Below are positions 4,543 to 57,839 of a DNA stretch of 58,852 nucleotides, piece by piece. The stretch is taken from IMG/VR virus record IMGVR_UViG_3300020463_000023, positions 1 to 58,852 of that record. The stretch is one strand, 5' to 3'. How positions within the stretch are numbered: position 1 is the stretch's first letter; each line of letters opens with the position of its first letter. A program made the position numbers and the translations under genes. The notes below the pieces were generated by a model. It made no database searches and had not been told where the DNA came from. It saw nothing but the letters and a program-made list of their open reading frames with translations. The stretch comes from a virus.

Positions 4543-5701
4543 GTTTCAATATTGTGTGACATTGCCAACTCTGGCCCTCTGGAGAACGCGACATGCCACT
4601 TTTGCGTTTCAGCGTGCCTTGATACCATGCCGCTTGTAATTCTCGATTCCATAAATGATTGTAAAAGTGATTGTGATTATGCTCCAGTATCGGTTCCAAC
4701 TTTTCATAAACCTGTTTGGGATCCTCCTGTGACAACTTATACATAGAGTCTAACAACATTTTCATTCTTTTATCTACGTCCGGCTCAGCGTCATAAGACT
4801 CATCTATTACAGGTGAAAAAGTTTTGAAACCTAAACTTCGGAATGCTTTGAGGTGATGCATGGTGCCCATTATTACAAACGGTCTCTTTGCCACTATAGG
4901 CTTTGCCTCCTTCTCGCTGAACATGGACAAACGGCTGTCGTCGGGTATAACGGTCTCCACTACACAAGAGTAATGGGACTGATTATATATGCTAGGGTCA
5001 ATGAGATCACTGCACCTTAGATTATGATCTTCCGCTATCGACTGTGCTCCAGACTTTCCATCCGTGGGCTTCACAACATCAGGCCCCCAATGTGTCACTC
5101 CTCTGGCATGACAGGTCGAGAAAGTGACCGAGTCTGTCTTATGCTCTTTCAACATGTCGTAAAGTTCTACGTGATGACTGCACATGAGCTCCCAGTGGTA
5201 TTTCTTATCCAGCGAATGCGAAACTTTTTGTAAAAGGGATCTGCAGACCGGAGATGTACGGTAAATTTTATTGCCCTCAAAGAACATGTCATTCAGGTAG
5301 TGCATCGGACGGTTGAGGTGTACATGAGATATTAAATTAGCAAAGAATGTTACAGGATCGTCTTTTGAGAATCTGTTGATGAAATCGTCTGTATAATAAT
5401 AAGGGCCCTCCGCTATGTTGTTTTCATAGTCCCAGCCATGCTTTGCTTCATCTTTCCAGAAAACAAGCGGTTCTCCCAGACCAACATAGACATGATTCGA
5501 CAATGTCATGTGAGTCCTTATCCTGTCTTCCAATGCGGCGAGAGACTGTAATGTTCCATTAAAGTCTTGTAGGTATGAATACTTTAGATCACAAGTAACG
5601 TTTTTAAATTTATCTAGATCTGTGTAGAGTGTATGCTCTACATGGCGATCACGGACACAGTAATGATGCCATTGTTTGTCGATGTATCTTGCTAACTTCA
5701 T
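4532..5701 (-). CDS. glycosyltransferase-like protein of a repeated phage family
   Basis: A 389-aa member of a family that occurs four times here (also 11010, 17008 and the split pair 18671/19246). The shared C-terminal signature is an EK...KPI....PF...G....L...R..GF.TF....DESYD....D..KRM pattern (here FSEKEAKPIVAKRPFVIMG and GFKTFSPVIDESYD), followed by HNHNHFYNHLW. The layout of an N-terminal variable half and a C-terminal half with E-K and R-x-x-G-F/Y-x-T-F blocks fits a GT-B-like or exostosin-like transferase, but that is inference from pattern alone. Confidence 0.45.
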   Translation of the reverse strand: MKLARYIDKQWHHYCVRDRHVEHTLYTDLDKFKNVTCDLKYSYLQDFNGTLQSLAALEDRIRTHMTLSNHVYVGLGEPLVFWKDEAKHGWDYENNIAEGPYYYTDDFINRFSKDDPVTFFANLISHVHLNRPMHYLNDMFFEGNKIYRTSPVCRSLLQKVSHSLDKKYHWELMCSHHVELYDMLKEHKTDSVTFSTCHARGVTHWGPDVVKPTDGKSGAQSIAEDHNLRCSDLIDPSIYNQSHYSCVVETVIPDDSRLSMFSEKEAKPIVAKRPFVIMGTMHHLKAFRSLGFKTFSPVIDESYDAEPDVDKRMKMLLDSMYKLSQEDPKQVYEKLEPILEHNHNHFYNHLWNRELQAAWYQGTLKRKSGMSRSPEGQSWQCHTILKPNY

Positions 5702-5727
5702 TTTGTCTACTTATCGTTATAGTAGCA

Positions 5728-5735
5728 CTTAAATA
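5728..5735 (+). promoter_or_regulatory. late-type promoter CTTAAATA
   Basis: CTTAAATA is followed by CCTT and then GTG 5740. This promoter-start arrangement decides the start of the amidinotransferase gene. Confidence 0.55.
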
Positions 5736-5739
5736 CCTT

Positions 5740-6657
5740 GTGCATATATCTACCAAAAATGAATACGGAGAGTTGAAATCGATCATAGTCGGAAGTGTGG
5801 AAAACTTTGAGTGGCCAGCAAATGACAAAGAGTTCGATGAAGGAATTGCTCGATCCACTTATCACCAAACTCTAAACAGAGGCAAACCGCCACAGCATGT
5901 TTTGGATGATACCAGCAGAGACCTGGATCTGCTGTCAGCAATTTTAGAATACAGAGGCATTAAGGTCTACAGACCTGAGATACTTGGGCCTCATTGGGCC
6001 TACTCTGCCAGAGACATATTGTTGACAGTGGGAAACAAAGTCATTCAGTGTCCGACTCCATTTTCCAGTCGTGCTAACGAATTAGACTTGTATCCTTTCC
6101 TGGAAAAAAATACACAATGTGAAATAATCAAGGCCCCTAGACCTAGCAAAAAAACAGATCCAATCTTCGATGCGGCCAACATCTTAAAGATGGATGACAG
6201 GCTGTTGTATTCTCTTTCGCATTCGGCCAACGAAGCAGGAGCAGACTGGTTACAACAACAAGTGGGAAACGAGTTTGAGGTAGTGAAATGGCGTGTGGTT
6301 GATCATGAAATCACACACATCGATTCAACTCTGGCCTCATTGGACAAAAACATTGTATTGGTAAATGCATCGAGAGTGAAGGAAGACCAACTACCTAAGT
6401 TCATGCAGGACTTTACCAAGATATGGGTTGACGACGTCACTGCCGGTACCTTTCATAACTTTCCATACGCCTCCAAATGGATAGGGATGAATGTGCTTTC
6501 ACTTGATCCAGAAACAGTGGTGGTTGATGAGATCCAAACGCAATTAATAGAAAATTTAGAGGCCCATGGATTCAAGATAATTACTACATCAATGACACAA
6601 TCAAGAACACTTGGCGGTGGTTTCCACTGTGTGACATGTGACATGGAAAGAAAATAA
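5740..6657 (+). CDS. glycine/inosamine amidinotransferase-like enzyme (AGAT family)
   Basis: A 305-aa enzyme. AGAT-family proteins move the amidino group of arginine to an amine acceptor through a Cys-His-Asp triad. All three sites are visible: FDAANIL (Asp about 144), HIDSTL (His about 193) and LGGGFHCVTCD (Cys about 297), the last nearly identical to the LGGGFHC motif of eukaryotic AGAT. The GTG start at 5740 aligns the N-terminus (KNEYGELKSIIVG) with the paralogue at 9545. It overlaps the next gene by one base (TAATG). Acceptor unknown; an amino sugar is suggested by the neighbouring dehydrogenase and aminotransferase-like genes. Confidence 0.8.
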   Translation: MHISTKNEYGELKSIIVGSVENFEWPANDKEFDEGIARSTYHQTLNRGKPPQHVLDDTSRDLDLLSAILEYRGIKVYRPEILGPHWAYSARDILLTVGNKVIQCPTPFSSRANELDLYPFLEKNTQCEIIKAPRPSKKTDPIFDAANILKMDDRLLYSLSHSANEAGADWLQQQVGNEFEVVKWRVVDHEITHIDSTLASLDKNIVLVNASRVKEDQLPKFMQDFTKIWVDDVTAGTFHNFPYASKWIGMNVLSLDPETVVVDEIQTQLIENLEAHGFKIITTSMTQSRTLGGGFHCVTCDMERK

Positions 6658-7754
6658 TGTTCAAAGTAACTCACCAATGGAATAAACTTAAAACATGTGT
6701 AGTAGGCAGTGCCTATCCCCCGGAACTGTTTGACTTTATAAAGGATGTTAATTTAAGAAAAACTTTTGAAACATTGGCAATGGAGACGGAAGAGGACATA
6801 AAAAAACTTGTAACGTTTCTCGAAACATCTGGGATCAATGTGATAAGGCCAAAGATGCCAGATAACCTAGAAGAATTCAAGATATCAAACGGATACATTG
6901 CACCACCAATATCCGCTAGAGACTTCATGGCCATGATTGACGATAAACTTTACTATCCTGGATTGCCTAATCTTAATCACGCATGGATGGAGTTCGCAAA
7001 CATGAATGATGTTCAGTCAAAGAATGACCTGCAGAACCAAGAATTGAATCAACAGTGGTTGGAGTTTCAAAAGCAAGACAAATACATATTTGACCAGAAG
7101 ATCAGTTTCTATAAAGACATTTTTACACTTGCACTGCAACAAGGAAATGAGGTTGTTGCCAGTCCAATTGATTACATGAACTCATCATTTATTACCAGAT
7201 TAGGCGATAGAATGATCGTTGGCACCCAAAACTATCATGATGACCATGACAGCATCAAAAACAAATTCTCACATATGTTTCCTGGCAAGCAAATTTTTGT
7301 TGCTTCTAGCGAAGGCCATTCGGATGGATGTTTTACTCCCATATCCGAGAATCTTATCATATCTGCCTACGACACTATAGATTATAACAAGATATTCCCC
7401 AACGCAGAAGTAATCTCTGTTCCAGCGGAGATCACTTTAAAAGACGATAAGTTCAAAAAACAGATGCTTACCGCAGAACACAAATGGTTCCTTGAAGGAA
7501 TGGAGAACAACAAGGATCTCGTGGACATGGTTGATTACTACTTTAACACCTGGATCGGTGATGTGAACGAAACGGCGTTCATGGTCAACATATTAATGCT
7601 TGACGAAAAGAACGCGGTATGTTCAACTGACAACAAGCAGGTCAGAGAAGCCATGCACAGGCACGGAGTTGAATTACACGTCACACCTTTCAGACACAGA
7701 TGGTTCTGGGACACAGGTATACATTGCCTAACACAGGATCTGGACAGAGAATAA
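6657..7754 (+). CDS. divergent amidinotransferase-like protein
   Basis: A 365-aa protein of the same guanidino-enzyme fold as its upstream neighbour: WNKLKTCVVGSAYPP at the N-terminus, ISARDFMAMID, GHSDGCFTPI in the region of the catalytic His, and DTGIHCLTQDLDRE with the C-terminal Cys. The FDAAN aspartate segment of the other two copies is replaced by MNSSFI, so chemistry or substrate may differ. The start is coupled to 5740-6657 and the end to the dehydrogenase at 7754, both by TAATG junctions. Confidence 0.7.
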   Translation: MFKVTHQWNKLKTCVVGSAYPPELFDFIKDVNLRKTFETLAMETEEDIKKLVTFLETSGINVIRPKMPDNLEEFKISNGYIAPPISARDFMAMIDDKLYYPGLPNLNHAWMEFANMNDVQSKNDLQNQELNQQWLEFQKQDKYIFDQKISFYKDIFTLALQQGNEVVASPIDYMNSSFITRLGDRMIVGTQNYHDDHDSIKNKFSHMFPGKQIFVASSEGHSDGCFTPISENLIISAYDTIDYNKIFPNAEVISVPAEITLKDDKFKKQMLTAEHKWFLEGMENNKDLVDMVDYYFNTWIGDVNETAFMVNILMLDEKNAVCSTDNKQVREAMHRHGVELHVTPFRHRWFWDTGIHCLTQDLDRE

Positions 7755-8935
7755 TGTTTGACATTTTTAAAAAAAATAAAATTGTATATGACACAAAGAT
7801 AGGGTTCATAGGTCTGGGCAAACTGGGTATGCCATGTGCAGAGGCCATAGCAAAGAAAGGCTTTGATGTTGCAGGCTACGACATCTTGCCAAAAAAAAGC
7901 AATTTAATTGAGATAAGAGAAGACATAGCGGATGTGTGTAGAGACAGAGATATTGTATTCGTGGCCACACCCACGCCACACGAAGACGGCTATGACGGAA
8001 GGACTCCTACAAGTCACTTGCCTGTGAAAGATTTCAACTATGATGCGGTCAAGAAGGTGTTGTCTAAATGCGACAAACACATGGGACCGAACGATACTCT
8101 GGTTCTTATATCAACCGTATTACCAGGCACGATACGTAGAGAATTACAGCCGCTGGTAACAAAAACCAAACTTATGTATAATCCATATCTCATAGCCATG
8201 GGCACAGTGGCAGACGACATGATCAATCCTGAGATGATAATGATAGGATCCAAGAATGGACTCGCGGGCAGAACCTGTAAGGCCAGATCAGAACTATTGG
8301 AAAGTTTCTACAACCAAGTGTGTGAAAATTTCCCACGCATAGAGTTTGGAACATTTGAAGAAGTCGAGTCAATGAAGATATTTTACAACACGTTTATCAG
8401 CAACAAAGTGGCATTGGTCAATATGATACAGGATGTTGCACATAAACTTGGAAACATGAACGTAGATGTTGTCACACAGGCCTTGGCCAAGAGCACTAAA
8501 CGTATTATAAGTCCTGCCTACATGAAAGCGGGAATGGGTGATGGCGGAGCATGCCATCCAAGAGACAACATAGCTCTGCGTTGGTTGGCCAAAGAACTGT
8601 CATTGGGTTATGACATGTTTGAATCTATTATGACAGCACGTGAAAAACAGGCAGAAACAATGGCTTTGGCAATTCTAAAGTATGGAAAGAACATCGCTTT
8701 CACTTCAGACAGTTACAAACCAGGTACACAGTTGGTCGATGGTTCCAGCTCACTACTCCTGCAACACTATGTGCAAAAACATGGTGGCATAATAGTTGAC
8801 GGCGTGGACGAACCTGTAGAGGTGATAGTGAGGATACACGAGTCTGACCAAGTCACCACAGACAATAACACCATAATTTTTGATCCATGGAGATCATACC
8901 CTGAAGCGGAGAATGTTGTACACTATGGCAAATAA
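7754..8935 (+). CDS. UDP-glucose/GDP-mannose dehydrogenase family protein
   Basis: A 393-aa protein. Family enzymes oxidise the C6 hydroxyl of a nucleotide sugar to a carboxylate using NAD. Visible are a Rossmann GLGKLG at residues 20-25, VATPTP and ISTVLPGT strands, the central-helix segment KIFYNTFISNKVALVN, and GMGDGGACHPRD with the catalytic Cys at about 267 (family GG.CFPKD). The start at 7754 follows a TAATG overlap; upstream in-frame starts lie inside the previous gene. At 393 aa it is slightly short but complete. It probably supplies a uronic-type sugar to the same pathway as the amidinotransferases. Confidence 0.8.
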   Translation: MFDIFKKNKIVYDTKIGFIGLGKLGMPCAEAIAKKGFDVAGYDILPKKSNLIEIREDIADVCRDRDIVFVATPTPHEDGYDGRTPTSHLPVKDFNYDAVKKVLSKCDKHMGPNDTLVLISTVLPGTIRRELQPLVTKTKLMYNPYLIAMGTVADDMINPEMIMIGSKNGLAGRTCKARSELLESFYNQVCENFPRIEFGTFEEVESMKIFYNTFISNKVALVNMIQDVAHKLGNMNVDVVTQALAKSTKRIISPAYMKAGMGDGGACHPRDNIALRWLAKELSLGYDMFESIMTAREKQAETMALAILKYGKNIAFTSDSYKPGTQLVDGSSSLLLQHYVQKHGGIIVDGVDEPVEVIVRIHESDQVTTDNNTIIFDPWRSYPEAENVVHYGK

Positions 8936-9548
8936 AAATATTGGTATGGACACGGTTGAGCAATTCGAAAAAGAAATTGCAAACTTTTATGATGCACCCT
9001 ATGCCGTTGCAACAGACAGTTGCACACACGCAATAGAACTTTGTCTAAGACACAGGCCACCAGCACCGGGCATAGAGTTGTCTGTTCCTTCAAGGACCTA
9101 TATCAGTATTCCTTTCACTTTGATAAAGTTGGATCTCCAATGGAATTTTGTTGATCAGGTGTGGCAAGATTATTATTACATCGGCGGCACAAACATCATA
9201 GACGCCGCAGTGTTTTTCCAAAGAGGCGGATACATCAGAGGAAACTACATGTGTCTAAGTTTCCAATTCAAAAAGGCATTGAGCCTAGGACGCGGTGGTG
9301 CAATACTATGCGATAATCTAGCCGACTACGAGCAATTGAAGATGATGAGTCATGATGGCAGGAAAATTGATGCTCCATGGCGTGAGCAAAACATCGCAAA
9401 AGTTGGATATCACTATTACATGACTCCGGAAACCGCAGATCTAGGGATACAAAAACTTCAACACGCTGTACCTAAACCAACTCAAGGCAGTGAGGATTAT
9501 CCATTCCTTCCAAACATGGATGTGTTCAAGCAACTGGATAAAAATTAA
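8925..9548 (+). CDS. half-size DegT-type aminotransferase-like protein
   Basis: A 207-aa protein and the second short DegT-like one (compare 2783-3370). It has YAVATDSCTHAIELCL, a PSRTYISIPFTL strand, IIDAAVFFQ in place of the conserved Asp motif, and SFQFKKALSLGRGGAILCDN with the Schiff-base lysine region; KK leaves the exact Lys ambiguous. The C-terminal domain is absent. The start could also be ATG 8946. It overlaps the dehydrogenase by 11 nt and converges on the amidinotransferase at 9545. Confidence 0.6.
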   Translation: MANKNIGMDTVEQFEKEIANFYDAPYAVATDSCTHAIELCLRHRPPAPGIELSVPSRTYISIPFTLIKLDLQWNFVDQVWQDYYYIGGTNIIDAAVFFQRGGYIRGNYMCLSFQFKKALSLGRGGAILCDNLADYEQLKMMSHDGRKIDAPWREQNIAKVGYHYYMTPETADLGIQKLQHAVPKPTQGSEDYPFLPNMDVFKQLDKN

Positions 9549-10528
9549 TTTGTTCGTTCTACATCAACAGTAATACAATGGAAACATCCGCCTAGAGTAC
9601 GGGCATGTCTCATGGGTAGCATGGCAGAATCTATTTTGTATTTTGCTAATTCTTTTCTAAGATTTTGCTGGTGTTCTTCCAGTACCACTAAATTTTCATT
9701 TATAGATAAAAGATTTACATTGATCCATGGACTAGAATTGCAATGGCCTGGATAATGACCTATGTCAACTGGTTCCGGGGCATTGATTACGTCCCAACTA
9801 CGCAATGGCAAAGGTAACTGTGACTTGTCTTTGATCCTCGAGGGGTTCACTAACAAGAGTCCTTCCCTTAGTAAGGCGATGGTGCTGTCCAAGTGCATGT
9901 AGGAATAAACGTCCTCGATAGTATGCACTTTCGCAGACTGTCCGACTATCTCCTGTAAAGTATCAGCACCTTTACGATTACCACTGTTACTCACAAGGTA
10001 ATACAGATTGTCATTGTGTTTCAGAATGTTGGCCGCATCAAAGCAAGGCTCCGTTTCGTTCAAGGCCAGCACGTTGGGGTCGCCCACGCAACCTAGATTA
10101 TACAAACTATCTTCACGTTCTATAGTGATGTGATGTCTGACAGTATCAAATTTATCAAATAGTTTGTCATATGCTCGGTGCTCACTGGCCCTCGCTCTCA
10201 AGGACATTGGTGTATAGATAACATTGTGGCCATGCACCAACACCGTGTCTCTTGGACAATAGGTGTAGTATTCTGGATCATGTTCTGGGTCCGGCCTCAA
10301 AACATTGATTTTTTCGCCTTTCAAAAAATCAATAAAGATAGCGATGTCTTCATTGGTTTCATCAATCACCTGCTGTGGATACAGGCCTTGCCCAGGAAGG
10401 TCGCTGTCTTTTGTTTTATCAGCGTAATTCACACACCTCATGCTGATGTCATTGATTGGTATCTTGGCCCCTGTGGCATCTCCGACGATCACTGTTTTCA
10501 GTTGGCTGTATTCGTTCCTGCTTAACAT
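9545..10528 (-). CDS. glycine/inosamine amidinotransferase-like enzyme (AGAT family)
   Basis: A 327-aa protein and the third amidinotransferase-type gene of the cluster, with a complete triad: PCFDAANIL (Asp about 164), MHLDSTI (His about 212) and LGGCFHCITVD (Cys about 318). It begins MLSRNEYSQLKTVIVG and shares YCPRDTVLVHG with the YSARDILLTVG block of the copy at 5740. The start overlaps the end of the 2OG-hydroxylase-like gene (10522) by 7 nt, so hydroxylase and amidinotransferase are co-transcribed. Confidence 0.8.
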   Translation of the reverse strand: MLSRNEYSQLKTVIVGDATGAKIPINDISMRCVNYADKTKDSDLPGQGLYPQQVIDETNEDIAIFIDFLKGEKINVLRPDPEHDPEYYTYCPRDTVLVHGHNVIYTPMSLRARASEHRAYDKLFDKFDTVRHHITIEREDSLYNLGCVGDPNVLALNETEPCFDAANILKHNDNLYYLVSNSGNRKGADTLQEIVGQSAKVHTIEDVYSYMHLDSTIALLREGLLLVNPSRIKDKSQLPLPLRSWDVINAPEPVDIGHYPGHCNSSPWINVNLLSINENLVVLEEHQQNLRKELAKYKIDSAMLPMRHARTLGGCFHCITVDVERTN

Positions 10529-32047: not shown

Positions 32048-33151
32048 ATGACGACAAAAACAGTTTTTAACCAGGAGAAAGTTGACTTTACTAAACAGCC
32101 TATGTTCTTTGGCGAGGACGGTGGCATACAGAGATATGACGAGTTCAAGTATCCACAGTTCGACAAACTGAATCAAACAATGATAGGTTACTTTTGGAGG
32201 CCTGAGGAAGTTAGTTTGCAGAAAGACAGAGCAGACTTCATGAACTTCAGACCAGAACAGAAACACATATTCACATCAAACTTGAAATACCAAACACTGT
32301 TGGATTCTGTACAGGGCAGAGGACCAAGTCTTATGTTCTTGCCATATGTTAGCAATCCAGAACTGGAAGGTTGCATAGTGACCTGGGATTTCTTTGAAAC
32401 AATACACTCACGTTCATACACACACATCATGAAGAATGTTTACAGTGATCCCTCAGAAGTTTTTGACACTATCTTACAAGACAAAGAGATTCTAAAGAGA
32501 GCAAAGAGTGTCACAGGTGAGTATGACAAGTTTGGTAGCATGGCATTGGATTATGCTGTGGGCAAGAAAGTGGACATGTTGGCTCTCAAGAAACAACTTT
32601 ACCTAGCAATGAACACAGTTAACCTACTAGAAGGTCTGAGATTCTACATATCGTTTGCCTGCACATTCGCATTTGGTGAACTGAAACTCATGGAAGGTTC
32701 AGCAAAGATACTTTCATTGATAGCAAGGGACGAAGCAACACACTTGAACCTTTCCACACACGTGATCAAGGCATGGCAAAAAGGTGATGATCCGGAAATG
32801 ACCAAGGCCATGAAAGGCACAGAGAAGACAGTGATACAGATGTTCAAGGACTGTGTCGAAGAAGAGAAAGCATGGGCCAAGTACCTTTTCAAAGATGGTT
32901 CTATAATAGGACTCAATGAGAAACTGTTGGGCAACTACGTTGAATGGATTGCCAACAAGAGACTGAGAGCACTGGGATATGATCCACTATACGACATATC
33001 AGCATCAGCAAACCCACTTCCATGGACGCAACACTGGCTATCATCAAAAGGTATGCAGGTGGCACCACAGGAAACAGAAGTAGAGTCATACATAGTTGGC
33101 GGCATCAAACAGGATGTCAAGAAAGGTCAATTCAGCAAGTTCAAACTTTAG
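32048..33151 (+). CDS. nrdB: ribonucleoside-diphosphate reductase beta subunit, class Ia
   Basis: A 367-aa ferritin-like protein that houses the di-iron tyrosyl-radical cofactor. WDFFETIHSRSYTHIMKN contains Glu (about 117), His (about 120) and the radical Tyr (about 124). IARDEATHLNLSTH supplies further metal ligands. The C-terminal tail SKFKL should dock to NrdA. Full length and intact. The next gene, cytochrome b, starts 11 nt after it, so the three could be expressed together. Confidence 0.95.
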   Translation: MTTKTVFNQEKVDFTKQPMFFGEDGGIQRYDEFKYPQFDKLNQTMIGYFWRPEEVSLQKDRADFMNFRPEQKHIFTSNLKYQTLLDSVQGRGPSLMFLPYVSNPELEGCIVTWDFFETIHSRSYTHIMKNVYSDPSEVFDTILQDKEILKRAKSVTGEYDKFGSMALDYAVGKKVDMLALKKQLYLAMNTVNLLEGLRFYISFACTFAFGELKLMEGSAKILSLIARDEATHLNLSTHVIKAWQKGDDPEMTKAMKGTEKTVIQMFKDCVEEEKAWAKYLFKDGSIIGLNEKLLGNYVEWIANKRLRALGYDPLYDISASANPLPWTQHWLSSKGMQVAPQETEVESYIVGGIKQDVKKGQFSKFKL

Positions 33152-33162
33152 AATTTATACAC

Positions 33163-34416
33163 ATGGATAGTAAAGATTACAAACCGGTCAACACGAACAA
33201 GGTTAAAGAGAATTCTTCTCCATTCAAAGGTCCATTGGGATGGTTGGACAACAGACTCCCTATATTCAGAATGTTCAAACATGAGTACTTGGACTTCCAG
33301 GTACCAAAGAATCTAAATTACTTTTGGAGTTTTGGGGCGATACTAACATTTACTTTGCTCGGTTTGATAGCCACAGGCCTGGTGTTAGGAATGCATTACA
33401 AACCTAGTGTCGCAGAAGCATTTGATAGTGTTGAGAAGATAATGAGAGATGTAAATGGTGGTTGGTTGTTGCGATACGCACACATGAATTTGGCATCATT
33501 CTTTTTTATTGCGGTCTATATCCATATGTTCCGCGGATTATACTTTGGTTCGTACAAAGAACCAAGGCAGTTGATGTGGATATTTGGAATCATTATATAT
33601 TTTTTAATGATGGCCACTGCTTTCCTTGGATATGTTTTACCATGGGGACAGATGAGTTATTGGGGAGCAACCGTAATCACAAGTCTATTCGGAGCCATAC
33701 CTCTAGTTGGAGACTCGATAGTTACATTATTGTGGGGCGATTACTCTGTCGGCGATGCCTTCCTTAATAGGGCATTTATACTGCATTGGCTGATTGCTTT
33801 CATTATAGTTTTGGTTGTTGTATTTCATGTCATTGCTTTGCACATGACTGGATCAAACAATCCCACAGGTGTTGAACCAAAGGACACTAGGGACACGGTA
33901 TCATTCCACCCGTACGTCACTATGAAAGACATGTACGCCTTCTTGGTTTTCCTATTGGTGTTCATGGCATTTTTGTTGTACATGCCAAACATACTGGGAC
34001 ATCCTGACAACTACATAGAAGCCAATCCAATGGTAACACCAGCACACATTGTACCAGAATGGTATTTCTTACCATGGTATGCAGTGCTTAGAGCGATTCC
34101 TGACAAACTGGGAGGTGTAATTGCTATGGTATCTGCCATAGGTGTAATGGCCTTGTTACCTTGGCTTGACACCAGCAAAATTAGATCTTCGATTTACAGG
34201 CCAATATGGAAACAGTTTACTTGGTTCGTGGTAGGCGATTTTTTCTTGTTGATGTACTGTGGAGCCATGCCAGCGGAAGGCCTATGGATTTTGTTGAGCA
34301 GAATAGGTACTGGTTATTGGTTCCTTTATTTCCTAGTGCTGGCCCCCGTCGTGGGATGGCTTGAAAAACCCCAATTGATACCAGACGCTATACACCTTGC
34401 AGATAAGAAAAAATAG
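33163..34416 (+). CDS. petB: cytochrome b of the bc1 complex
   Basis: A 417-aa membrane protein, the core of respiratory complex III. It transfers electrons from quinol across the membrane through two b haems. Four haem ligands are present as two His pairs, each 14 residues apart (about 107/121 and 208/222); the second spacing marks bc1-type, not b6-type. GYVLPWGQMSYWGATV and the Qo-site PEWY (about 298-301) are intact. It reads through to a third, C-terminal membrane pair, so both the N- and C-terminal parts are fused as in proteobacteria. No Rieske or cytochrome c1 gene is nearby. It lies between nrdB and PAAR, that is, inside phage genes. Confidence 0.93.
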   Translation: MDSKDYKPVNTNKVKENSSPFKGPLGWLDNRLPIFRMFKHEYLDFQVPKNLNYFWSFGAILTFTLLGLIATGLVLGMHYKPSVAEAFDSVEKIMRDVNGGWLLRYAHMNLASFFFIAVYIHMFRGLYFGSYKEPRQLMWIFGIIIYFLMMATAFLGYVLPWGQMSYWGATVITSLFGAIPLVGDSIVTLLWGDYSVGDAFLNRAFILHWLIAFIIVLVVVFHVIALHMTGSNNPTGVEPKDTRDTVSFHPYVTMKDMYAFLVFLLVFMAFLLYMPNILGHPDNYIEANPMVTPAHIVPEWYFLPWYAVLRAIPDKLGGVIAMVSAIGVMALLPWLDTSKIRSSIYRPIWKQFTWFVVGDFFLLMYCGAMPAEGLWILLSRIGTGYWFLYFLVLAPVVGWLEKPQLIPDAIHLADKKK

Positions 34417-36704: not shown

Positions 36705-37252
36705 AAAAATTTGCAAGGCAAAACAACTGGACACAAGGCCTAGAACTGGGTGTATGGGTCGGGGTGACCACGTTCTGGTTAATGAAGAACACAAACGTGA
36801 ACATGACCTGTGTGGACGCCTGGGAGGTGCAGGACGACAACCCCGAGTACGACTGGCAGTACAACAAGAAGCCTGTGTTCAAAGGCGGGAAACTATTACG
36901 CCTAGAGGAATTCAAACACCAAGGACAGATATGGAATCATAATGCTAATGAACAGAGATTCCGTGCAGATGCTGAACAGTGGAGAGACAGGATCAAAATT
37001 ATCAAGGGAAGATCATTAAATGTACTAGATCAGATACCAGATGACAGCATGGACTTCATATTCCATGATTCTGATCATTCATATCCCTTTGTTAAGAACG
37101 AGATCCAGGCATTCCTGCCTAAACTTAAATCAGGAGGTTACTCCATGGGAGATGATCATAACTGGACACCTGTGGCACAGTCTGTAGACGAAGCATTCAA
37201 AGGAAAGTACAAGGTTACCGGCAAGGATGTTTGGTACGCTGTGAAGGATTAA
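36683..37252 (+). CDS. class I SAM-dependent methyltransferase
   Basis: A 189-aa protein. GLELGVWVGVTTFWLM is the SAM glycine loop, MTCVDAWE the acidic end of strand 2, and MDFIFHDSDHSYPFVKNEIQ with LKSGGYSMGDDH the late strands seen in Methyltransf_24-type enzymes acting on sugars. A Shine-Dalgarno GGAGA lies before ATG 36683. It overlaps the GT-A-like gene by 22 nt. Likely methylates what that enzyme makes, which is inference. Confidence 0.75.
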   Translation: MDRYRVIEKFARQNNWTQGLELGVWVGVTTFWLMKNTNVNMTCVDAWEVQDDNPEYDWQYNKKPVFKGGKLLRLEEFKHQGQIWNHNANEQRFRADAEQWRDRIKIIKGRSLNVLDQIPDDSMDFIFHDSDHSYPFVKNEIQAFLPKLKSGGYSMGDDHNWTPVAQSVDEAFKGKYKVTGKDVWYAVKD

Positions 37253-37458
37253 TCCTCTGTCTTTTTGCAACCTATCTCAATACTTTCATAGGGTTCATTA
37301 TACATTGAGAATATGTCAGTCATTCCATAGAAACGGAACTCAGCATCTCGTTCACATTCATTTAATGTCTGGTATGTGACATTATCGCTATCATCGAAGT
37401 TAGTGCATTGGACTTCGCCGTTGACGAGAATACACATCACCATGAAAAGTTTATACAT
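37249..37458 (-). CDS. small secreted four-cysteine protein, family copy 1
   Basis: A 69-aa protein beginning with a short hydrophobic signal-like helix (MYKLFMVMCILVNGEVQC), then a charged part with a TLNECERDAEFRF motif and a final IGCKKTED. Two relatives occur at 38582 and 53450 with the same T-x-x-E-C helix and late Cys. Probably periplasmic or membrane-tethered. It lies directly downstream of the tmRNA coding piece on the same strand. Confidence 0.6.
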   Translation of the reverse strand: MYKLFMVMCILVNGEVQCTNFDDSDNVTYQTLNECERDAEFRFYGMTDIFSMYNEPYESIEIGCKKTED

Positions 37459-37469
37459 AATAATAGTTA

Positions 37470-37667
37470 TGGCCCGTTCTGTTGCAAGGTGGGCCAAACC
37501 CCTGAAATTATTGGTTATTACGCCGCTAATCTCAATTCAGGCATACTGACTGTTAAATCAGCAAACCCTAATGCTTTTTTGTTTGCATTTAAAAACTGGA
37601 CGTAACCTCGTGCCTACTGGAAGTTCTCGTAAAAAGTTTCAACGTGAATCGATCCTAATTCCACCCC
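37470..37667 (-). ncRNA. ssrA: tmRNA coding piece (circularly permuted, two-piece ssrA)
   Basis: On the minus strand the mature 5' half starts GGGGTGG at 37667 and pairs with CCACTCC of the acceptor piece through seven pairs, including the tmRNA-specific G3-U70 wobble. The GGATCGATTCACGTTGAAAC that follows resembles the tmRNA D-loop region, then a resume GCA codon and tag frame appear at 37586-37518. A TGGCCC/GGGCCA hairpin (37470-37496) probably marks the 3' end. The 3' boundary is approximate. The gene frees stalled ribosomes and marks proteins for proteolysis. Confidence 0.85.
37518..37586 (-). other. tmRNA tag reading frame (22 codons, ends in LAA)
   Basis: Starting at resume codon GCA (37586-37584), the frame encodes ANKKALGF, then ADLTVSM, and ends PELRLAA before TAA (37520-37518). 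Ala first and a hydrophobic -LAA end are the standard marks of tmRNA tags, and -LAA is the classical ClpX recognition signal. The phage also encodes a ClpX (56321). The tag is longer than the usual 8-15 residues. Confidence 0.8.
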
Positions 37668-37686
37668 TCAAGTTTCATTGCTTAAA

Positions 37687-37751
37687 TGGTGGAGTGGCTG
37701 GGAATTGCACCCAGGTCTTCACCGTCTATTGATTTTTAGTCAACAAACTCA
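37687..37751 (-). ncRNA. ssrA: tmRNA acceptor piece (tRNA-like 3' half with CCA)
   Basis: On the minus strand, the T-arm CTGGG-TGCAATT-CCCAG (37714-37698) is followed by acceptor strand CCACTCC, discriminator A and encoded CCA (37689-37687). The piece lies upstream of the coding piece, with a 19-nt spacer (37668-37686). This reversed order defines circularly permuted ssrA, known from alphaproteobacteria and some picocyanobacteria. A TTGA/TCAA helix with a 7-nt loop lies 5' of the T-arm. The 5' end is inferred from the promoter. Confidence 0.85.
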
Positions 37752-37757
37752 ATTATA

Positions 37758-37786
37758 ATTATAGCCTAAGGTTGACGTCTTGTCAA
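37758..37786 (-). promoter_or_regulatory. consensus sigma70 promoter for tmRNA
   Basis: A perfect TTGACA (37786-37781), 17-bp spacer and TATAAT (37763-37758), with the start expected near 37751, right at the acceptor piece. The -35 lies within the palindrome GTTGAC-GTCTT-GTCAAC (37771-37787). Confidence 0.85.
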
Positions 37787-37800
37787 CTTTGTGCTAAATT
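37772..37800 (+). promoter_or_regulatory. divergent sigma70-type promoter TTGACG-17-TAAATT
   Basis: The other arm of the same palindrome supplies TTGACG (37772-37777), with TAAATT at 37795-37800 at 17-bp spacing. The expected start is at or next to ATG 37808, leaderless. The -35 elements of the two divergent promoters share one 17-bp palindrome. Confidence 0.55.
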
Positions 37801-37807
37801 AGTTTAT

Positions 37808-38011
37808 ATGCCAAAAAATAGAATATTCAAGATCACAGACGGAACAGAGACCAAAGAGGTCGAGGCCATGTCTTTTAAGAAAGCAGTCAAGTCATTTCAG
37901 GGCAGTTCTAAAGCCAAGATGATAACTATCGAATGGATGACCAAGGGCGGAGAGCTCTTTGTCAAAGACCAGAAATTACCACTTGGTAGAAAGAAAAAGA
38001 TAGGACGTTAG
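37808..38011 (+). CDS. hypothetical basic protein
   Basis: A 67-aa protein beginning MPKNRIFKITDGTETKEVEA. The ATG at 37808 fits the promoter; an in-frame ATG at 37772 lies inside the promoter and is rejected. Basic C-terminus (LPLGRKKKIGR). The repeated strands (FKITDGTET, ITIEWMTKGGEL) suggest a small beta-rich domain. Function unknown. Confidence 0.6.
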   Translation: MPKNRIFKITDGTETKEVEAMSFKKAVKSFQGSSKAKMITIEWMTKGGELFVKDQKLPLGRKKKIGR

Positions 38012-43387: not shown

Positions 43388-44438
43388 GTTTGTAGATCTT
43401 AATAGATGCTGGCAGGAACTTAAATCCGATCTTTTACCTGCCTATGACGGGATCCATACAAGTGGTATGGTGTCGAACGGAAAGTATAGGACATTGGTTG
43501 AAGACCAGTTAAAAGATATGACTGGAAGAAAACATTGTAGGTTAACGACATCAGGAACTACGGCCATACAAGGGTCTCTGATTGCATGGAATATTTTGCA
43601 AAAGAAGGTTGCCTGTACAAATTACAGTTATGTCGCAAGTACTAATCAGGCGGCACTGTTCAACGATGTAATTTTATTTGATGTAAATGAAAATGGAAAT
43701 ATTGTAATTGACTCGGATGTTAATGTCGATGCAATTATTCCTGTTAGCCTATTCGGTAATCCAGTTGACTATGATACAATAACATCACACGTAGGAAATG
43801 CAAAAATAATAGCCGACTGTGCCCAAAGTTTAGGATCCAAATACAAAGGCGCTCCAGATGGCAGTCTAGGCGATTGTTCTATTTTAAGTTTTGCAACAAA
43901 TAAGCCTGTACCGACTGCTGGAACACAAGGAGCAGTTTTGTTTGACGACGACAATATGGTAGAAAAAGTAGGTAGGGCTCTTAATAATGGCAAACTTTCG
44001 AGAAATTCAAGGATAGAGTCTCATGGAATAAATGGCAACTCCTATGAATTACAGGCGGCGCAAATACATTTTGGATTGAAGCGCCTAGAACAATGGCAAA
44101 GCAAAAGGAAACAGATATCAGAGTATTACATGTCTGAATTCAAAGATCTTCCCATCTGTATAATCAAAGCAGAAAAAAATTGTGATTCGAATTGGCATAA
44201 GTTTGTAATCAAAACTGACAAGAGAGATAGTCTTTGTGAATTCTTGAAACAAAAAGGCATAGATTCGCAAAAGCACTACACAGATAACTTCGCTGAATTT
44301 TTTGGATCTGGTAATGACGTTATGCCTACTACAGAAAAACTTTGTGCAACAGTTTTATCTATCCCTAACAATCAATGGCTGACTGATCAAGAAGTGAAAC
44401 ACATCAGCAATAATATCAAAAATTTTTTCAATGCTTGA
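43380..44438 (+). CDS. full-length DegT/DnrJ/EryC1 PLP aminotransferase
   Basis: A 352-aa protein. LTTSGTTAIQGSLIAWNI binds the cofactor phosphate, IIADCAQSLGSKYKGAPDG holds the Asp-x-x-Gln site, SILSFATNKPVPTAGTQGAV the Schiff-base Lys, and HGINGNSYELQAAQIHFGLKR the family's later N-x-x-E-x-x-A-A block. It has the complete C-terminal domain that the two short copies lack. Such enzymes make amino sugars from keto-sugars. It overlaps neighbours by 8 nt on each side. Confidence 0.8.
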   Translation: MIKFVDLNRCWQELKSDLLPAYDGIHTSGMVSNGKYRTLVEDQLKDMTGRKHCRLTTSGTTAIQGSLIAWNILQKKVACTNYSYVASTNQAALFNDVILFDVNENGNIVIDSDVNVDAIIPVSLFGNPVDYDTITSHVGNAKIIADCAQSLGSKYKGAPDGSLGDCSILSFATNKPVPTAGTQGAVLFDDDNMVEKVGRALNNGKLSRNSRIESHGINGNSYELQAAQIHFGLKRLEQWQSKRKQISEYYMSEFKDLPICIIKAEKNCDSNWHKFVIKTDKRDSLCEFLKQKGIDSQKHYTDNFAEFFGSGNDVMPTTEKLCATVLSIPNNQWLTDQEVKHISNNIKNFFNA

Positions 44439-45720
44439 ATTGATTAACCCTGCTTTGGTCGGGATAGTTGCCGGACTGATAAGCGGATGTATTCCTGGAA
44501 TTGGCAACTTTGCAAGTCTTATTATTTTATTTCCATATCTAATTAACCTTGACCCATTACAAATATTAATTCTATATGTTGCATTGACAACTATATCGCA
44601 ATATATAGGCAGTATTCCTGCAATTACTTTTGGAATACCTGGAGAGTCTTCGTCTGTCCCTGCTGTGATAGAGTCACGTAATCTTAAAACACCTGAACAA
44701 ATATACCAAGCGATTGTGGGCAGTGCAATAGGCTCTACATTTGGTGGCTTAATTGTACTGGCAATCACTTGGGTAATGTTAGATTGGCTTATACACAGTG
44801 TACATTTCTTTAACACTATAATACAATTTTCTCTTTACTGCATAATGCTGATAGGAATAATTTTTGTTTTTAAAGAGAATAGATATTGGGTCAATGTATT
44901 AATGATTGCACTTGGATTATTGCTAGGGCTAATTGGATTTAATAAATGGACACAAACAACCTATCTCACATTCAATAATGATTTTTTATTTCAAGGTTTG
45001 CCTATGATAGTTATCGTCATTATCTTATTAGGCATTCCCGAGATACTTAAAAATTATAAGACAAAGTTGCAATATAAAGATATAAGTTATCAACGTTGCA
45101 AAATAAAATTTAAATGGATTCAGTCTAGTTGGTATAGCCTGCTAGGTTTTGTAGGTGGTTTAACACCTGGACTCACAACGACCATGTCAAGCCAATTAGC
45201 ATGGATGGATGCCAAGTTTCGGAAAAAAGATCCGGTCGATAGAATTATTGCATCAGAAACTGCCAATAACGCTGGTGCTTTCAGCCAATTACTGCCTCTT
45301 ATACTTCTAGGTATTCCATTGGTGGGCAGTGAAGCATTGGTGTTAGGTTTGTTAGAAGGCAAGGGTTTTAGACTTGACATGACAACTTTTAACGACATTT
45401 TTATTGTGGTTGGAATATCACTGTTGTTTATTAATATCATTGGATTATGTCTTGCATGGCCATTGGCAAAAACCATTGTCAAATTGTTTCGGTTTAACAT
45501 AAAAAAAATATACATGATAATCTTTTTATTATTCATAATGATTATTTTATATATTGGTTACATAAATTATCAAACTTATTACTATCTAATGGTTTCGATC
45601 TGCTTATTGCCACTTGCGTACATGCTTAGAAGAGTTGACACCATGCCCCTTATCTTTGCTTTCTTAATACATGACAGACTAATTGACACCGGATATAGAG
45701 TCATCAGTCTTTATTGGTAA
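44431..45720 (+). CDS. tctA: TctA-family tripartite tricarboxylate transporter membrane subunit
   Basis: A 429-aa, polytopic membrane protein. VGIVAGLISGCIPGIGNFAS and IGSIPAITFGIPGESSSVPA are the signature loops of TctA; VGGLTPGLTTTMSSQLAWMD, SETANNAGAFSQLLP and LLGIPLVGSEALVLGLL are the repeat in the second half. The length is below the usual 500 aa but both halves are present. TctA needs TctB and a periplasmic binding protein; a binding protein follows at 45823 but no TctB is visible. Confidence 0.85.
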   Translation: MLELINPALVGIVAGLISGCIPGIGNFASLIILFPYLINLDPLQILILYVALTTISQYIGSIPAITFGIPGESSSVPAVIESRNLKTPEQIYQAIVGSAIGSTFGGLIVLAITWVMLDWLIHSVHFFNTIIQFSLYCIMLIGIIFVFKENRYWVNVLMIALGLLLGLIGFNKWTQTTYLTFNNDFLFQGLPMIVIVIILLGIPEILKNYKTKLQYKDISYQRCKIKFKWIQSSWYSLLGFVGGLTPGLTTTMSSQLAWMDAKFRKKDPVDRIIASETANNAGAFSQLLPLILLGIPLVGSEALVLGLLEGKGFRLDMTTFNDIFIVVGISLLFINIIGLCLAWPLAKTIVKLFRFNIKKIYMIIFLLFIMIILYIGYINYQTYYYLMVSICLLPLAYMLRRVDTMPLIFAFLIHDRLIDTGYRVISLYW

Positions 45721-45733
45721 TAAATATAATTGG

Positions 45734-45771
45734 AGTCAAGTAAAATTATATGTTTATTCTGTGGCTTGACT
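45734..45771. promoter_or_regulatory. 7-bp inverted repeat AGTCAAG/CTTGACT upstream of the binding-protein gene
   Basis: AGTCAAG (45734-45740) and CTTGACT (45765-45771). The right arm includes a TTGACT, with TATAAT 20 bp downstream (45792-45797), too far for a standard promoter. Possible operator or hairpin. Confidence 0.35.
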
Positions 45772-45822
45772 TTAATCTCCACATATATTACTATAATTTA
45801 AAAAATAAAAAAAGGAATGAAA

Positions 45823-46692
45823 ATGAATAAATTTATAGTAACTCTTATTGGCCTGATGCTATTCAGTAATGCAACCTTTGCCAAAGATAAACTTACAGTG
45901 TTAAATGCAGGCTCAAAAACGGGCTACTTCGCGATGCAGATGACTGCCATATCAAAAGATCTTTCACCACACTATGATGTTGATTTAAAGATACCTGGTG
46001 ATTATTGCACAGCAATTAAAATGTTGGAAAATATAAAAGGACCAGTCCTGATGCCATGGGCCAACGATTTCGAAGCGATTGGAAGAGATGGTACAGGATG
46101 TGCCACCCATGTTGTAAATCCTACACAGGTTGTTAGATATGATATATCTGTAATGTGCCTGTGTTCAATGAAATACGATGCCGAGTCAATGATGAAAAAT
46201 ATACACAACGTAGGACACACGGTGCCGGCCAAACCATTTGATAGGGCAATTACGGCTGTGAATGAATCCTTTGGGACAAAGTTAAAGCCTATCGCATACG
46301 ATGGTTCTGGGGCAACTAAAACAGGACTGTACAATGGAGAAGTTGATTTTGCCATGCTTTCATTTAAACATGGAAAAGATATCATTAAAAATGGTGGATC
46401 GTGTTTTTATGAATTCAGTGCTGACCCAAAAGGGAATTTCGAAGCACTCGGAATATTAGATCCTTCTAATAAATTACTGATCGCTGGGTATGATGCTGTC
46501 TGGTTGGCATTGAACATGACAGATGATCAAATTGCGGTGTTGAAAGATAGGATATTTACGGCTCACCAAAATCCAAATAGTTCAATCTACGGATACACAG
46601 ATGGGGGCAAAGCAATAAAAATATATTGGAACATGACAGCAGAACAAACAACGCAAATGTGGGAGACAAGTGTACAAAATTTAAGAGATTAA
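45823..46692 (+). CDS. Bug/TctC-like periplasmic solute-binding protein
   Basis: A 289-aa protein. The start at ATG 45823 (7 nt after AAGGA) gives a clean signal peptide MNKFIVTLIGLMLFSNATFA. Lobe motifs resemble Bug proteins: NAGSKTGYFAMQ, VLMPWANDF, HTVPAKPFDRAI, YDGSGATKTGLYNGEVDFAM and AGYDAVWLALN. It should bind a carboxylate or similar solute for the TctA upstream. Periplasmic. Ligand unknown; less similar to standard TctC than TctA is to its family. Confidence 0.75.
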   Translation: MNKFIVTLIGLMLFSNATFAKDKLTVLNAGSKTGYFAMQMTAISKDLSPHYDVDLKIPGDYCTAIKMLENIKGPVLMPWANDFEAIGRDGTGCATHVVNPTQVVRYDISVMCLCSMKYDAESMMKNIHNVGHTVPAKPFDRAITAVNESFGTKLKPIAYDGSGATKTGLYNGEVDFAMLSFKHGKDIIKNGGSCFYEFSADPKGNFEALGILDPSNKLLIAGYDAVWLALNMTDDQIAVLKDRIFTAHQNPNSSIYGYTDGGKAIKIYWNMTAEQTTQMWETSVQNLRD

Positions 46693-53449: not shown

Positions 53450-53659
53450 TTAATCGTAAGCGTGAGTGCAACCTAGTTCTAGGTGTGCAACAGTCAAGTA
53501 ACCGTCTTCGTCAGTGAACATTTCAAGGGTTTGTTGTTTTTTAAGGACTAATGCTTTTTCGCATTCGGCTTTGGTATCGAAAAATCTTGGTGGATCTTCA
53601 TGCATGGTATTGCATTCTAAAACCGTGACAGCACAGATCACTGCAAACATCTTGAACAT
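53450..53659 (-). CDS. small secreted four-cysteine protein, family copy 3
   Basis: A 69-aa protein beginning MFKMFAVICAVTVLECNTMH, then EDPPRFFDTKAECEKALVLK and ELGCTHAYD. Closest to copy 2 at 38582 (EDP, then T-x-x-E-C and a late Cys). Probably periplasmic. Its presence at three separate sites suggests an important, mobile family. Confidence 0.6.
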   Translation of the reverse strand: MFKMFAVICAVTVLECNTMHEDPPRFFDTKAECEKALVLKKQQTLEMFTDEDGYLTVAHLELGCTHAYD

Positions 53660-56042: not shown

Positions 56043-56346
56043 TATAAAAAACAAGATAGGAAATGTAACTTTGGTTACCCCTCCGTCGATGGTAGACCCA
56101 AATGGAGTCAGTTTCACCATTGTCGACCTAGATGAGGAGCAGAAGAAAATTTTTTCCAGTAAATTGGACGAACACTTTCTTAGTAGTGAAATCACAGTTT
56201 TTGTGTGGGATGGTAACAGTAGTAACGAGAAGTGGCTCGAAGAAGCAAATTTAAAAAGTGATTACGTGATTCAAGGAACACAAGATATTATTAAACAAGT
56301 GGAAACAATAAAGGTAGAGCATGACAGAAGAAAGTTTGATCTGTAA
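56035..56346 (+). CDS. hypothetical protein
   Basis: A 103-aa protein (MDNIKNKIGNVTLVTPPSMV; EITVFVWDGNSSNEKWLEEA) in overlap with the membrane-protein gene and, by 26 nt, with clpX. VWDGNS...DYVIQGTQDIIKQVE suggests a small alpha/beta domain. Its fixed place before clpX suggests a linked role. No family recognised. Confidence 0.6.
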   Translation: MDNIKNKIGNVTLVTPPSMVDPNGVSFTIVDLDEEQKKIFSSKLDEHFLSSEITVFVWDGNSSNEKWLEEANLKSDYVIQGTQDIIKQVETIKVEHDRRKFDL

Positions 56347-57571
56347 TTTTTGCAGTAAATCAAGAAAAGACGTCACAAAGATGATAGTCGGTGCCAAGAA
56401 GACATCCATCTGCAATGAGTGTGTCACTCTTTGTGTAGAAATACTGGAAGAAGACGTGATAAAAGCACGTAAAGAGAAACTGTACGCAGGAGACAAGAAC
56501 ATTCTCAATCCTGTGGCAATCAAAGAACACCTTGATCAATATGTAATAGGACAGGACGCCGCAAAGACAGTGTTGAGTGTCGCTGTGGCAAATCATTACA
56601 AAAGAATAGTACAACCACCCATTGATTTTGACCTAGACAAATCTAATGTTATGGTGTTGGGAGCCACAGGAGCAGGGAAGACGCTGATGGCAAGGACAAT
56701 AGCAAAATATCTTGATGTACCATTTGCAATCGCGGATGCGACAACTCTCACAGAGTCAGGTTACGTAGGAGAAGACGTTGAGAATGTTGTGCAAAAACTC
56801 TACGCCAATGCAGATGGCGATATTGAAAAGGCACAGAAAGGCATCATCTTTATAGACGAAATCGACAAGATATGCAGGAAAGGTGAAAACACATCGCTGA
56901 CCAGGGACGTATCTGGCGAGGGTGTGCAACAAGGATTGTTAAAAATTGTTGAAGGAACTGAATGTAGAGTGCCGCCCCATGGTGGACGTAAACATCCTGA
57001 CCAACAGACCGTGACCATAGACACGTCAAACATACTCTTCATCGTGGGTGGTGCGTTTACTGAACTGGAGAAACAGATAAGAAGGAAGAAGGCATCAGGG
57101 GGTATAGGATTTGGAACTAAACTGCAGGAACAAGACGACAGGAATTACCTGTCTGAAGCACAGCCTGAAGACCTGATCAAGTACGGACTGATACCAGAGT
57201 TTGTTGGTAGGTTCTCCATGATCACCAACATAGATCCGTTGAGTGAAGCACAACTGATAAGAATACTGACAGAACCAAAAAATGCTATCCTCAAACAGAC
57301 TCACTATCTCTTTGGACTGGACAACATAGACATTGAGTTTACCAAAGAGGCCAAGCAGTGCATCGCACGTAAGGCCAAAGAGTTAGGGACCAACGCAAGG
57401 GGGCTGAAAAACGTAGTAGACACAGTGGTTCTGCCTTATCAGTTCGACGCAGAGGAGATGAGAAACAGAGGAGTGTCCAAGATTCAGATAACTAATCAGG
57501 TGGTTGACAACGGAGCAGACCCTGTGTTAGTATTTAGAAAAACGAATGGAATATCAAAAAAACAAAGTTAG
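56321..57571 (+). CDS. clpX: ClpX AAA+ unfoldase subunit
   Basis: A 416-aa, full-length ClpX that unfolds proteins and feeds them to ClpP. Zinc-binding Cys at about 8, 11, 31 and 34; Walker A GATGAGKT (about 114-121, Ala for Pro); Walker B FIDEIDK; pore loop GYVGED; RKH loop GGRKHPDQ; IGF loop GGIGFGTK, which docks ClpP. All functional loops are intact, so it could combine with host ClpP. No clpP gene is visible in the window. It overlaps the genes on both sides (bS21 by 26 nt). Confidence 0.95.
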   Translation: MTEESLICNFCSKSRKDVTKMIVGAKKTSICNECVTLCVEILEEDVIKARKEKLYAGDKNILNPVAIKEHLDQYVIGQDAAKTVLSVAVANHYKRIVQPPIDFDLDKSNVMVLGATGAGKTLMARTIAKYLDVPFAIADATTLTESGYVGEDVENVVQKLYANADGDIEKAQKGIIFIDEIDKICRKGENTSLTRDVSGEGVQQGLLKIVEGTECRVPPHGGRKHPDQQTVTIDTSNILFIVGGAFTELEKQIRRKKASGGIGFGTKLQEQDDRNYLSEAQPEDLIKYGLIPEFVGRFSMITNIDPLSEAQLIRILTEPKNAILKQTHYLFGLDNIDIEFTKEAKQCIARKAKELGTNARGLKNVVDTVVLPYQFDAEEMRNRGVSKIQITNQVVDNGADPVLVFRKTNGISKKQS

Positions 57572-57839
57572 ACCCAAGTTCAAGAAAACAGAAAGACCTC
57601 TGGGTTTCCAAGGTTACTACGTGGAAGTACGTGAAGGTGAGGATGCCGTTAGGGCATATAGAAAAATCAAGAGATGGATCAAGGAAGACAAGTTCATAGA
57701 TCAGATCAGAGCCAACAACACCTATCAGAAACCATCAGAAATCAAGAGAGAAAAAGCCAAAGAAAAGAGAAAAGTCCTACGTAAACTGCGTAGGGAACGT
57801 GACAGTAATCTGTCACTGCGTCCACAGAGAGGCAGATAA
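57546..57839 (+). CDS. rpsU: ribosomal protein bS21-like
   Basis: A 97-aa protein. VEVREGEDAVRAYRKIKRWI then FIDQIRANNTYQKPSEIKRE and KAKEKRKVLRKLRRERD match bS21 (family: ....V.EA.R.fKr...., .Y.KPSe.r..k..e..rr.rk). It is longer than usual because of an N-terminal extension (about residues 1-24) and a C-terminal tail. bS21 helps the 30S subunit bind mRNA, so a phage copy could favour phage messages. It overlaps clpX by 26 nt. Confidence 0.8.
   Translation: MEYQKNKVRPKFKKTERPLGFQGYYVEVREGEDAVRAYRKIKRWIKEDKFIDQIRANNTYQKPSEIKREKAKEKRKVLRKLRRERDSNLSLRPQRGR

What the first reader, a model, noticed from the sequence alone, without database searches (positions are those of the whole stretch)
37470..37787. 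Phage-encoded, circularly permuted two-piece tmRNA with its own consensus promoter
Seen directly on the minus strand: acceptor piece with T-arm, CCACTCC-A-CCA end; 19-nt spacer; coding piece starting GGGGTGG that pairs with it, including the obligatory G3-U70 wobble; a resume GCA and a 22-codon tag ending LRLAA-stop; a perfect TTGACA-17-TATAAT promoter in front. This order is the permuted form known from alphaproteobacteria and some picocyanobacteria, so the phage appears to have taken a host gene. The tag is unusually long. A two-piece tmRNA in a phage would be a notable find.
Basis: partly seen in the sequence, partly recalled or inferred. Interest (0 to 1): 0.93.

Follow-up and report, generated by a model that had tools for sequence, protein, structure and literature searches.

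The report
Marine phage's own two-piece tmRNA
A marine bacterial virus carries a complete, conserved gene for a two-piece ribosome-rescue RNA (tmRNA) with its own promoter and an unusually long degradation tag; such RNAs are already known in marine phages, so this is a well-supported new member with a few new twists rather than a first.

Summary
On the minus strand, 37471-37786, lies a circularly permuted (two-piece) tmRNA: RF04321 88.6 bits (cut-off 47), RF01849 85.5 bits (cut-off 50), and an ARAGORN call. A perfect TTGACA-17-TATAAT promoter ends just where the RNA should begin. G3-U70 is invariant in 24 of 24 aligned sequences, and helices covary far above controls. Tag: ANKKALGFADLTVSMPELRLAA, 22 aa.

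That a two-piece tmRNA in a phage would be a notable find does not hold: it is published for marine phages (Melnitz, Mosig, about 50 others; PMC9004378), and one pattern scan hit its limit at 119 IMG/VR stretches. A recent capture from the host is not supported: the gene sits in a phage-only clade (support 0.97), far from the SAR11-type hosts sampled.

New here: the 22-aa tag family is conserved in about 30 IMG/VR contigs and differs from those hosts' 10-aa tag; the -35 box lies in a dyad TTGAC-N5-GTCAA found almost only at this promoter; the phage also encodes an intact-looking ClpX plus ClpS, Hsp20 and bS21, but no SmpB or ClpP was found. Most likely it performs ordinary trans-translation with host SmpB, AlaRS and ClpP, perhaps feeding the phage's own ClpX.

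The parts
37758..37786 (-). sigma-70 promoter TTGACA-17-TATAAT of the tmRNA; expected start of transcription about 37750, where the RF04321 match begins
   Evidence: conserved in 26 of 27 relatives
37772..37786 (.). dyad TTGAC-AAGAC-GTCAA overlapping the -35 box; candidate operator
   Evidence: 18 of 22 aligned tmRNA loci; 27 of 29 occurrences in 3.7 Mb of loci are at this promoter, some loci counted more than once; 21 of 27 in the later tag-core set, which overlaps the first
37687..37750 (-). acceptor piece: T-arm (CTGGG/CCCAG), acceptor 3' strand CCACTCC, A, CCA
   Evidence: T-stem and acceptor pairs 100% kept in 24 sequences
37668..37686 (-). 19-nt intervening sequence removed on maturation (inferred)
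   Evidence: the permuted gene form as described in PMC11915505
37471..37667 (-). coding piece: acceptor 5' strand GGGGTGG, PK1 region, tag frame, 3' hairpin
37521..37586 (-). tag reading frame ANKKALGFADLTVSMPELRLAA, followed by TAA TAA (37520-37515)
   Evidence: tag family in about 30 IMG/VR contigs
37471..37495 (-). 3' hairpin GGCCC ... GGGCC
   Evidence: 88% of cells paired, all five pairs with changes on both sides
56321..57571 (+). phage ClpX (416 aa): zinc finger, Walker A and B, GYVG pore loop, RKH and IGF loops present; possible consumer of the tag
   Evidence: NCBIfam equivalog PRK05342 532.8 bits against cut-off 359; Pfam; motifs
57546..57839 (+). ribosomal protein bS21-like
   Evidence: PF01165, TIGR00030
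57957..58406 (+). Hsp20 / IbpA-like small heat-shock protein
   Evidence: PF00011
58493..58789 (+). ClpS-like adaptor
   Evidence: PF02617 83 bits; below the NCBIfam equivalog cut-offs
37808..38011 (+). divergent 67-aa gene sharing the intergenic promoter region; conserved beside the tmRNA, function unknown
   Evidence: predicted beta-beta-alpha-beta-beta fold, pLDDT 85

Best explanation
It is a working permuted tmRNA gene of a large marine phage lineage. Host RNA polymerase transcribes it from the perfect promoter, possibly under a regulator that binds the dyad over the -35 box. Host tRNA-processing enzymes cut out the 19-nt spacer, leaving two pieces held together by the acceptor stem. Host AlaRS charges it through G3-U70 and host SmpB carries it to stalled ribosomes. 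There it adds ANKKALGFADLTVSMPELRLAA and frees the ribosome; the C-terminal LAA sends the product to a Clp protease. The phage makes its own ClpX (and ClpS), so a plausible, unproven extension is that phage ClpX with host ClpP takes part in the degradation. Shown: gene, structure, promoter, conserved tag, intact-looking ClpX, no SmpB or ClpP found in the records searched. Inferred: processing, charging, tagging, degradation and the ClpX link.
For: Two covariance models above cut-off and ARAGORN. In 24 sequences, 115 cells change on both sides of a pair against 48 in shuffles; covariation score 0.418 against 0.156, and at most 0.130 when slid. Promoter kept in 26 of 27 relatives. Tag pN/pS 0.33 in frame against 0.77 and 1.65 in the other frames. 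13 of 15 records with ClpX at 65% identity or more also carry the tmRNA; the other two are 22 and 46 kb fragments. No SmpB or ClpP in 23 family records, with positive controls. ClpX above equivalog cut-offs with all motifs.
Against: No expression or tagging data. The match to RF01849 has several non-standard pairs outside the tRNA domain, and PK1 is weak in single sequences. Records are fragments, so a missing SmpB or ClpP is not proof. Mosig has a permuted tmRNA without ClpX, and 0 of 13 IMG/VR contigs with other phage tmRNAs showed ClpX, so phage ClpX is not required for a phage tmRNA.
Confidence: 0.85

Rival explanations
1. Phage-private degradation route: the long conserved tag is read by the phage's own ClpX (or ClpS or another factor), so that the phage, not the host, decides which proteins are tagged and destroyed.
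For: Tag interior conserved at the amino-acid level; tag differs from the sampled hosts' ANDNELALAA; phage ClpX only 48% identical to their ClpX; ClpX and tmRNA together in 13 of 15 records.
Against: No direct evidence of recognition. Other phages have long tags, and the contigs holding them that were searched (L009, L048, L072, L074, L080) showed no ClpX. Both genes may simply be core genes of one lineage.
Confidence: 0.25
2. Ribosome rescue only: the phage needs free ribosomes (it also encodes bS21) and the tag's destination matters little.
For: Ribosome rescue is the basic function of tmRNA (established knowledge); bS21 in the same phage.
Against: The tag interior is conserved beyond the frame controls and the RLAA end is kept in essentially all members.
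Confidence: 0.2
3. A decoy or inhibitor of the host tmRNA, or a decayed relic.
For: A phage DS6A RNA without a tag frame inhibits endogenous tmRNA when expressed in E. coli (PMC11915505).
Against: Complete acceptor, T-arm, resume codon, tag and stop; compensatory changes throughout the tRNA domain; conserved promoter.
Confidence: 0.04
4. The contig is bacterial, not phage.
For: It carries cytochrome b, NrdAB and a TctA transporter.
Against: Tail spike, virion structural and PAAR-type proteins; the family includes a 172-kb contig with phage DNA polymerase and tail-fibre genes; filed in IMG/VR.
Confidence: 0.02

Closest known systems
Two-piece tmRNA of phage Melnitz (MZ577097) and Pelagibacter phage Mosig (MT647606), PMC9004378
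   Same: Permuted, alphaproteobacterial-type tmRNA in marine myophages; both phages encode bS21 and Mosig also Hsp20
   Different: Tags of 14 aa (ANDNYVPVDYALAA) and 9 aa as called by ARAGORN (GEDNFALAA) against 22 aa here; Melnitz's is described as riboswitch-controlled, here a sigma-70 promoter with a dyad; Mosig has no ClpX
Alphaproteobacterial permuted tmRNA (RF01849 / RF04321)
   Same: Piece order, CCA, spacer, G3-U70, resume codon, tag ending LAA
   Different: Tag 22 aa and of another sequence; several non-standard pairs outside the tRNA domain; no near relative among the SAR11-type hosts sampled
Sinorhizobium jumbo phage AP-J-162 (PMC11242549)
   Same: One phage with tmRNA, ClpX and Hsp20
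   Different: 471-kb jumbo phage of a soil host; its tag and gene form are not described in the passages read

Membership tests
Permuted (two-piece) tmRNA | Acceptor piece with T-arm and CCA upstream, coding piece downstream, short spacer between | tested here: met
   19-nt spacer
Permuted (two-piece) tmRNA | Covariance model above the curated cut-off | tested here: met
   RF04321 88.6 against 47; RF01849 85.5 against 50
Permuted (two-piece) tmRNA | G3-U70 alanine identity pair | tested here: met
   invariant in 24 of 24
Permuted (two-piece) tmRNA | Tag frame with alanine resume codon, ending in a Clp degron (LAA) | tested here: met
Permuted (two-piece) tmRNA | PK1 between the acceptor 5' strand and the resume codon | tested here: inconclusive
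   comparative support for one stem, none in single sequences
Permuted (two-piece) tmRNA | Transcript processed into two pieces, charged with Ala, bound by SmpB | not testable with these tools
   needs RNA from infected cells
ClpX unfoldase (56321-57571) | Zinc finger, Walker A/B, GYVG, RKH, IGF loop; equivalog score | tested here: met
Phage-encoded tmRNA captured recently from the host | Groups with host tmRNAs in a tree | tested here: not met
   mainly against one SAR11-type host family; the phage's host itself is not known

The most novel reading that the evidence does not exclude
A phage-private tag-and-destroy system: a phage tmRNA that writes a lineage-specific 22-aa degron, paired with a phage ClpX (and ClpS) that borrows host ClpP to read it, switched by a regulator at the TTGAC-N5-GTCAA dyad.
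Probability: 0.22. Interest if true: 0.78.

Novelty: new member of a known kind. Interest (0 to 1): 0.45.

Why it matters
It adds a coherent phage family in which a two-piece tmRNA is near-core and travels with a phage ClpX. That makes it testable whether phages run their own protein-tagging and degradation pathway or simply keep ribosomes free. The conserved tag and promoter dyad give concrete handles.

Tried and rejected
blastn of the tmRNA against 50,697 phage records: no match. Single-sequence PK1 search: not better than shuffles. SmpB and ClpP in family records: none. T4 portal model: no match, but nothing rang in the controls either, so uninformative. Mosig AAA protein as a ClpX relative: rejected. 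Divergent 67-aa gene as a DNA-binding regulator: confident model, but its only good structural match is an uncharacterised viral protein. Base-rate control for the ClpX-tmRNA pairing: 0 of 11 contigs with a related DNA polymerase carry the tmRNA, but most are short, so no enrichment is claimed. More distant ClpX phages: 12 of 32 carry a permuted tmRNA above cut-off.

Full report
What is there. The minus strand between 37786 and 37471 carries, in order: a perfect TTGACA-17-TATAAT promoter, an acceptor piece with T-arm and CCA, a 19-nt spacer, and a coding piece that starts GGGGTGG and holds a 22-codon tag frame. ARAGORN calls a permuted tmRNA with tag ANKKALGFADLTVSMPELRLAA. Rfam gives RF04321 at 88.6 bits and RF01849 at 85.5 bits, both well above cut-off. 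No other tRNA lies in the window. The RF04321 match begins at 37750, 8 nt after the -10 box, where a transcript from this promoter would start.

Is it structured beyond chance? I aligned the window gene with 21 related phage genes and two host genes and counted pairs for a structure fixed from the window sequence. Acceptor and T stems are kept in every sequence, with G3-U70 invariant. The T stem occurs in several different sequences, each fully paired, and the 3' hairpin covaries at all five pairs. The covariation score is 0.418 against 0.156 in shuffles and at most 0.130 when the partners are slid. Because the structure was taken from one of the aligned sequences, the slide control leans in its favour; the shuffles do not preserve relatedness. 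PK1 is weaker: its second stem is mostly kept, its first does not line up across subtypes, and single-sequence tests do not beat shuffles.

How widespread? Related ClpX and cytochrome b genes fetched the phage family. Of 39 records chosen from these and from the first scan, 21 carry the permuted tmRNA, including 13 of the 15 with ClpX at 65% identity or more. Nearly all have the same tag, ANxxALGFADLTVgMsxLRLAA. A scan with the tag core, which overlaps the first set, found 30 contigs in the whole collection.

Tag. In-frame pN/pS is 0.33, against 0.77 and 1.65 in the other frames; this is moderate evidence, from 16 distinct short sequences. In the sampled host family, 29 of 32 genes read ANDNELALAA. 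Melnitz and Mosig have 14 and 9 aa. Other phage groups have tags of 29-31 aa of different sequence, so long tags recur in phages.

Promoter. 26 of 27 relatives keep TTGACA and a -10 box 17 nt apart. The -35 lies in a dyad TTGAC-N5-GTCAA whose right half is not needed for sigma-70; 21 of 27 keep it exactly. Of 29 occurrences in 3.7 Mb of fetched loci, 27 are at this promoter, some loci being counted more than once. A divergent conserved 67-aa gene shares the intergenic region. That the dyad is an operator is inference.

Partners. The right end of the window encodes ClpX, bS21, Hsp20 and ClpS. ClpX keeps every catalytic and docking motif checked; some relatives have MGF in place of IGF. It is 48% identical to the sampled hosts' ClpX. 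No SmpB or ClpP was found in 23 family records, so host SmpB and ClpP would be needed.

Origin and host. The window's G+C is 41.5%, above the roughly 30% of the host loci. The host is therefore a lead, not a result. The tmRNA tree gives one phage clade for the tag family (support 0.973) far from those hosts.

Prior knowledge. Two-piece tmRNAs in marine phages were described in PMC9004378: 53 of 133 unique phage tmRNAs were two-piece and 50 of those came from marine or aquatic phages. Sinorhizobium phage AP-J-162 has tmRNA, ClpX and Hsp20. I found no paper in the library that describes this tag family, this promoter dyad or a phage tmRNA-ClpX link; the library lacks most subscription journals.

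Judgement. A real, functional-looking gene and a new member of a known kind. The open and more interesting question is whether its conserved long tag is read by the phage's own ClpX.

Noticed in passing
33022-34416 (+): Full-length cytochrome b of the bc1 complex in a phage; 27 IMG/VR loci carry relatives, the phage collection only one weak match. Closest cellular copies found are SAR11-type.
   Followed up: partly
37249-37455 (-): Small ORF (MYKLFMVMCILVNGEVQC...) starting 18 nt after the conserved CAACAGAA near the tmRNA 3' end; a similar ORF lies downstream of the tmRNA in about 13 relatives, and another at 53450-53659 (-).
   Followed up: partly
1-58852: Seven exact TTGACA-(15 to 19)-TATAAT promoters against 0.2 expected in a Markov model: the phage appears to rely on host sigma-70.
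   Followed up: partly
44431-46692 (+): TctA-family transporter followed by a 291-aa protein without a family match that by eye resembles a solute-binding protein.
   Followed up: no
5629-6657, 6657-7754 (+), 9545-10528 (-): Three proteins that look alike by eye, one with a weak arginine deiminase match, near a nucleotide-sugar dehydrogenase-like gene (7700-8935).
   Followed up: no
L228-L248, L013, L050: T-arm and acceptor types are exchanged between otherwise similar tmRNAs; the window's acceptor and 19-nt spacer resemble those of another phage group (L013, L050) with short tags, suggesting modular recombination.
   Followed up: partly
L009, L028, L048, L055, L063, L072, L074, L080: Other phage tmRNAs with 29-31 aa tags of different sequence.
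   Followed up: no
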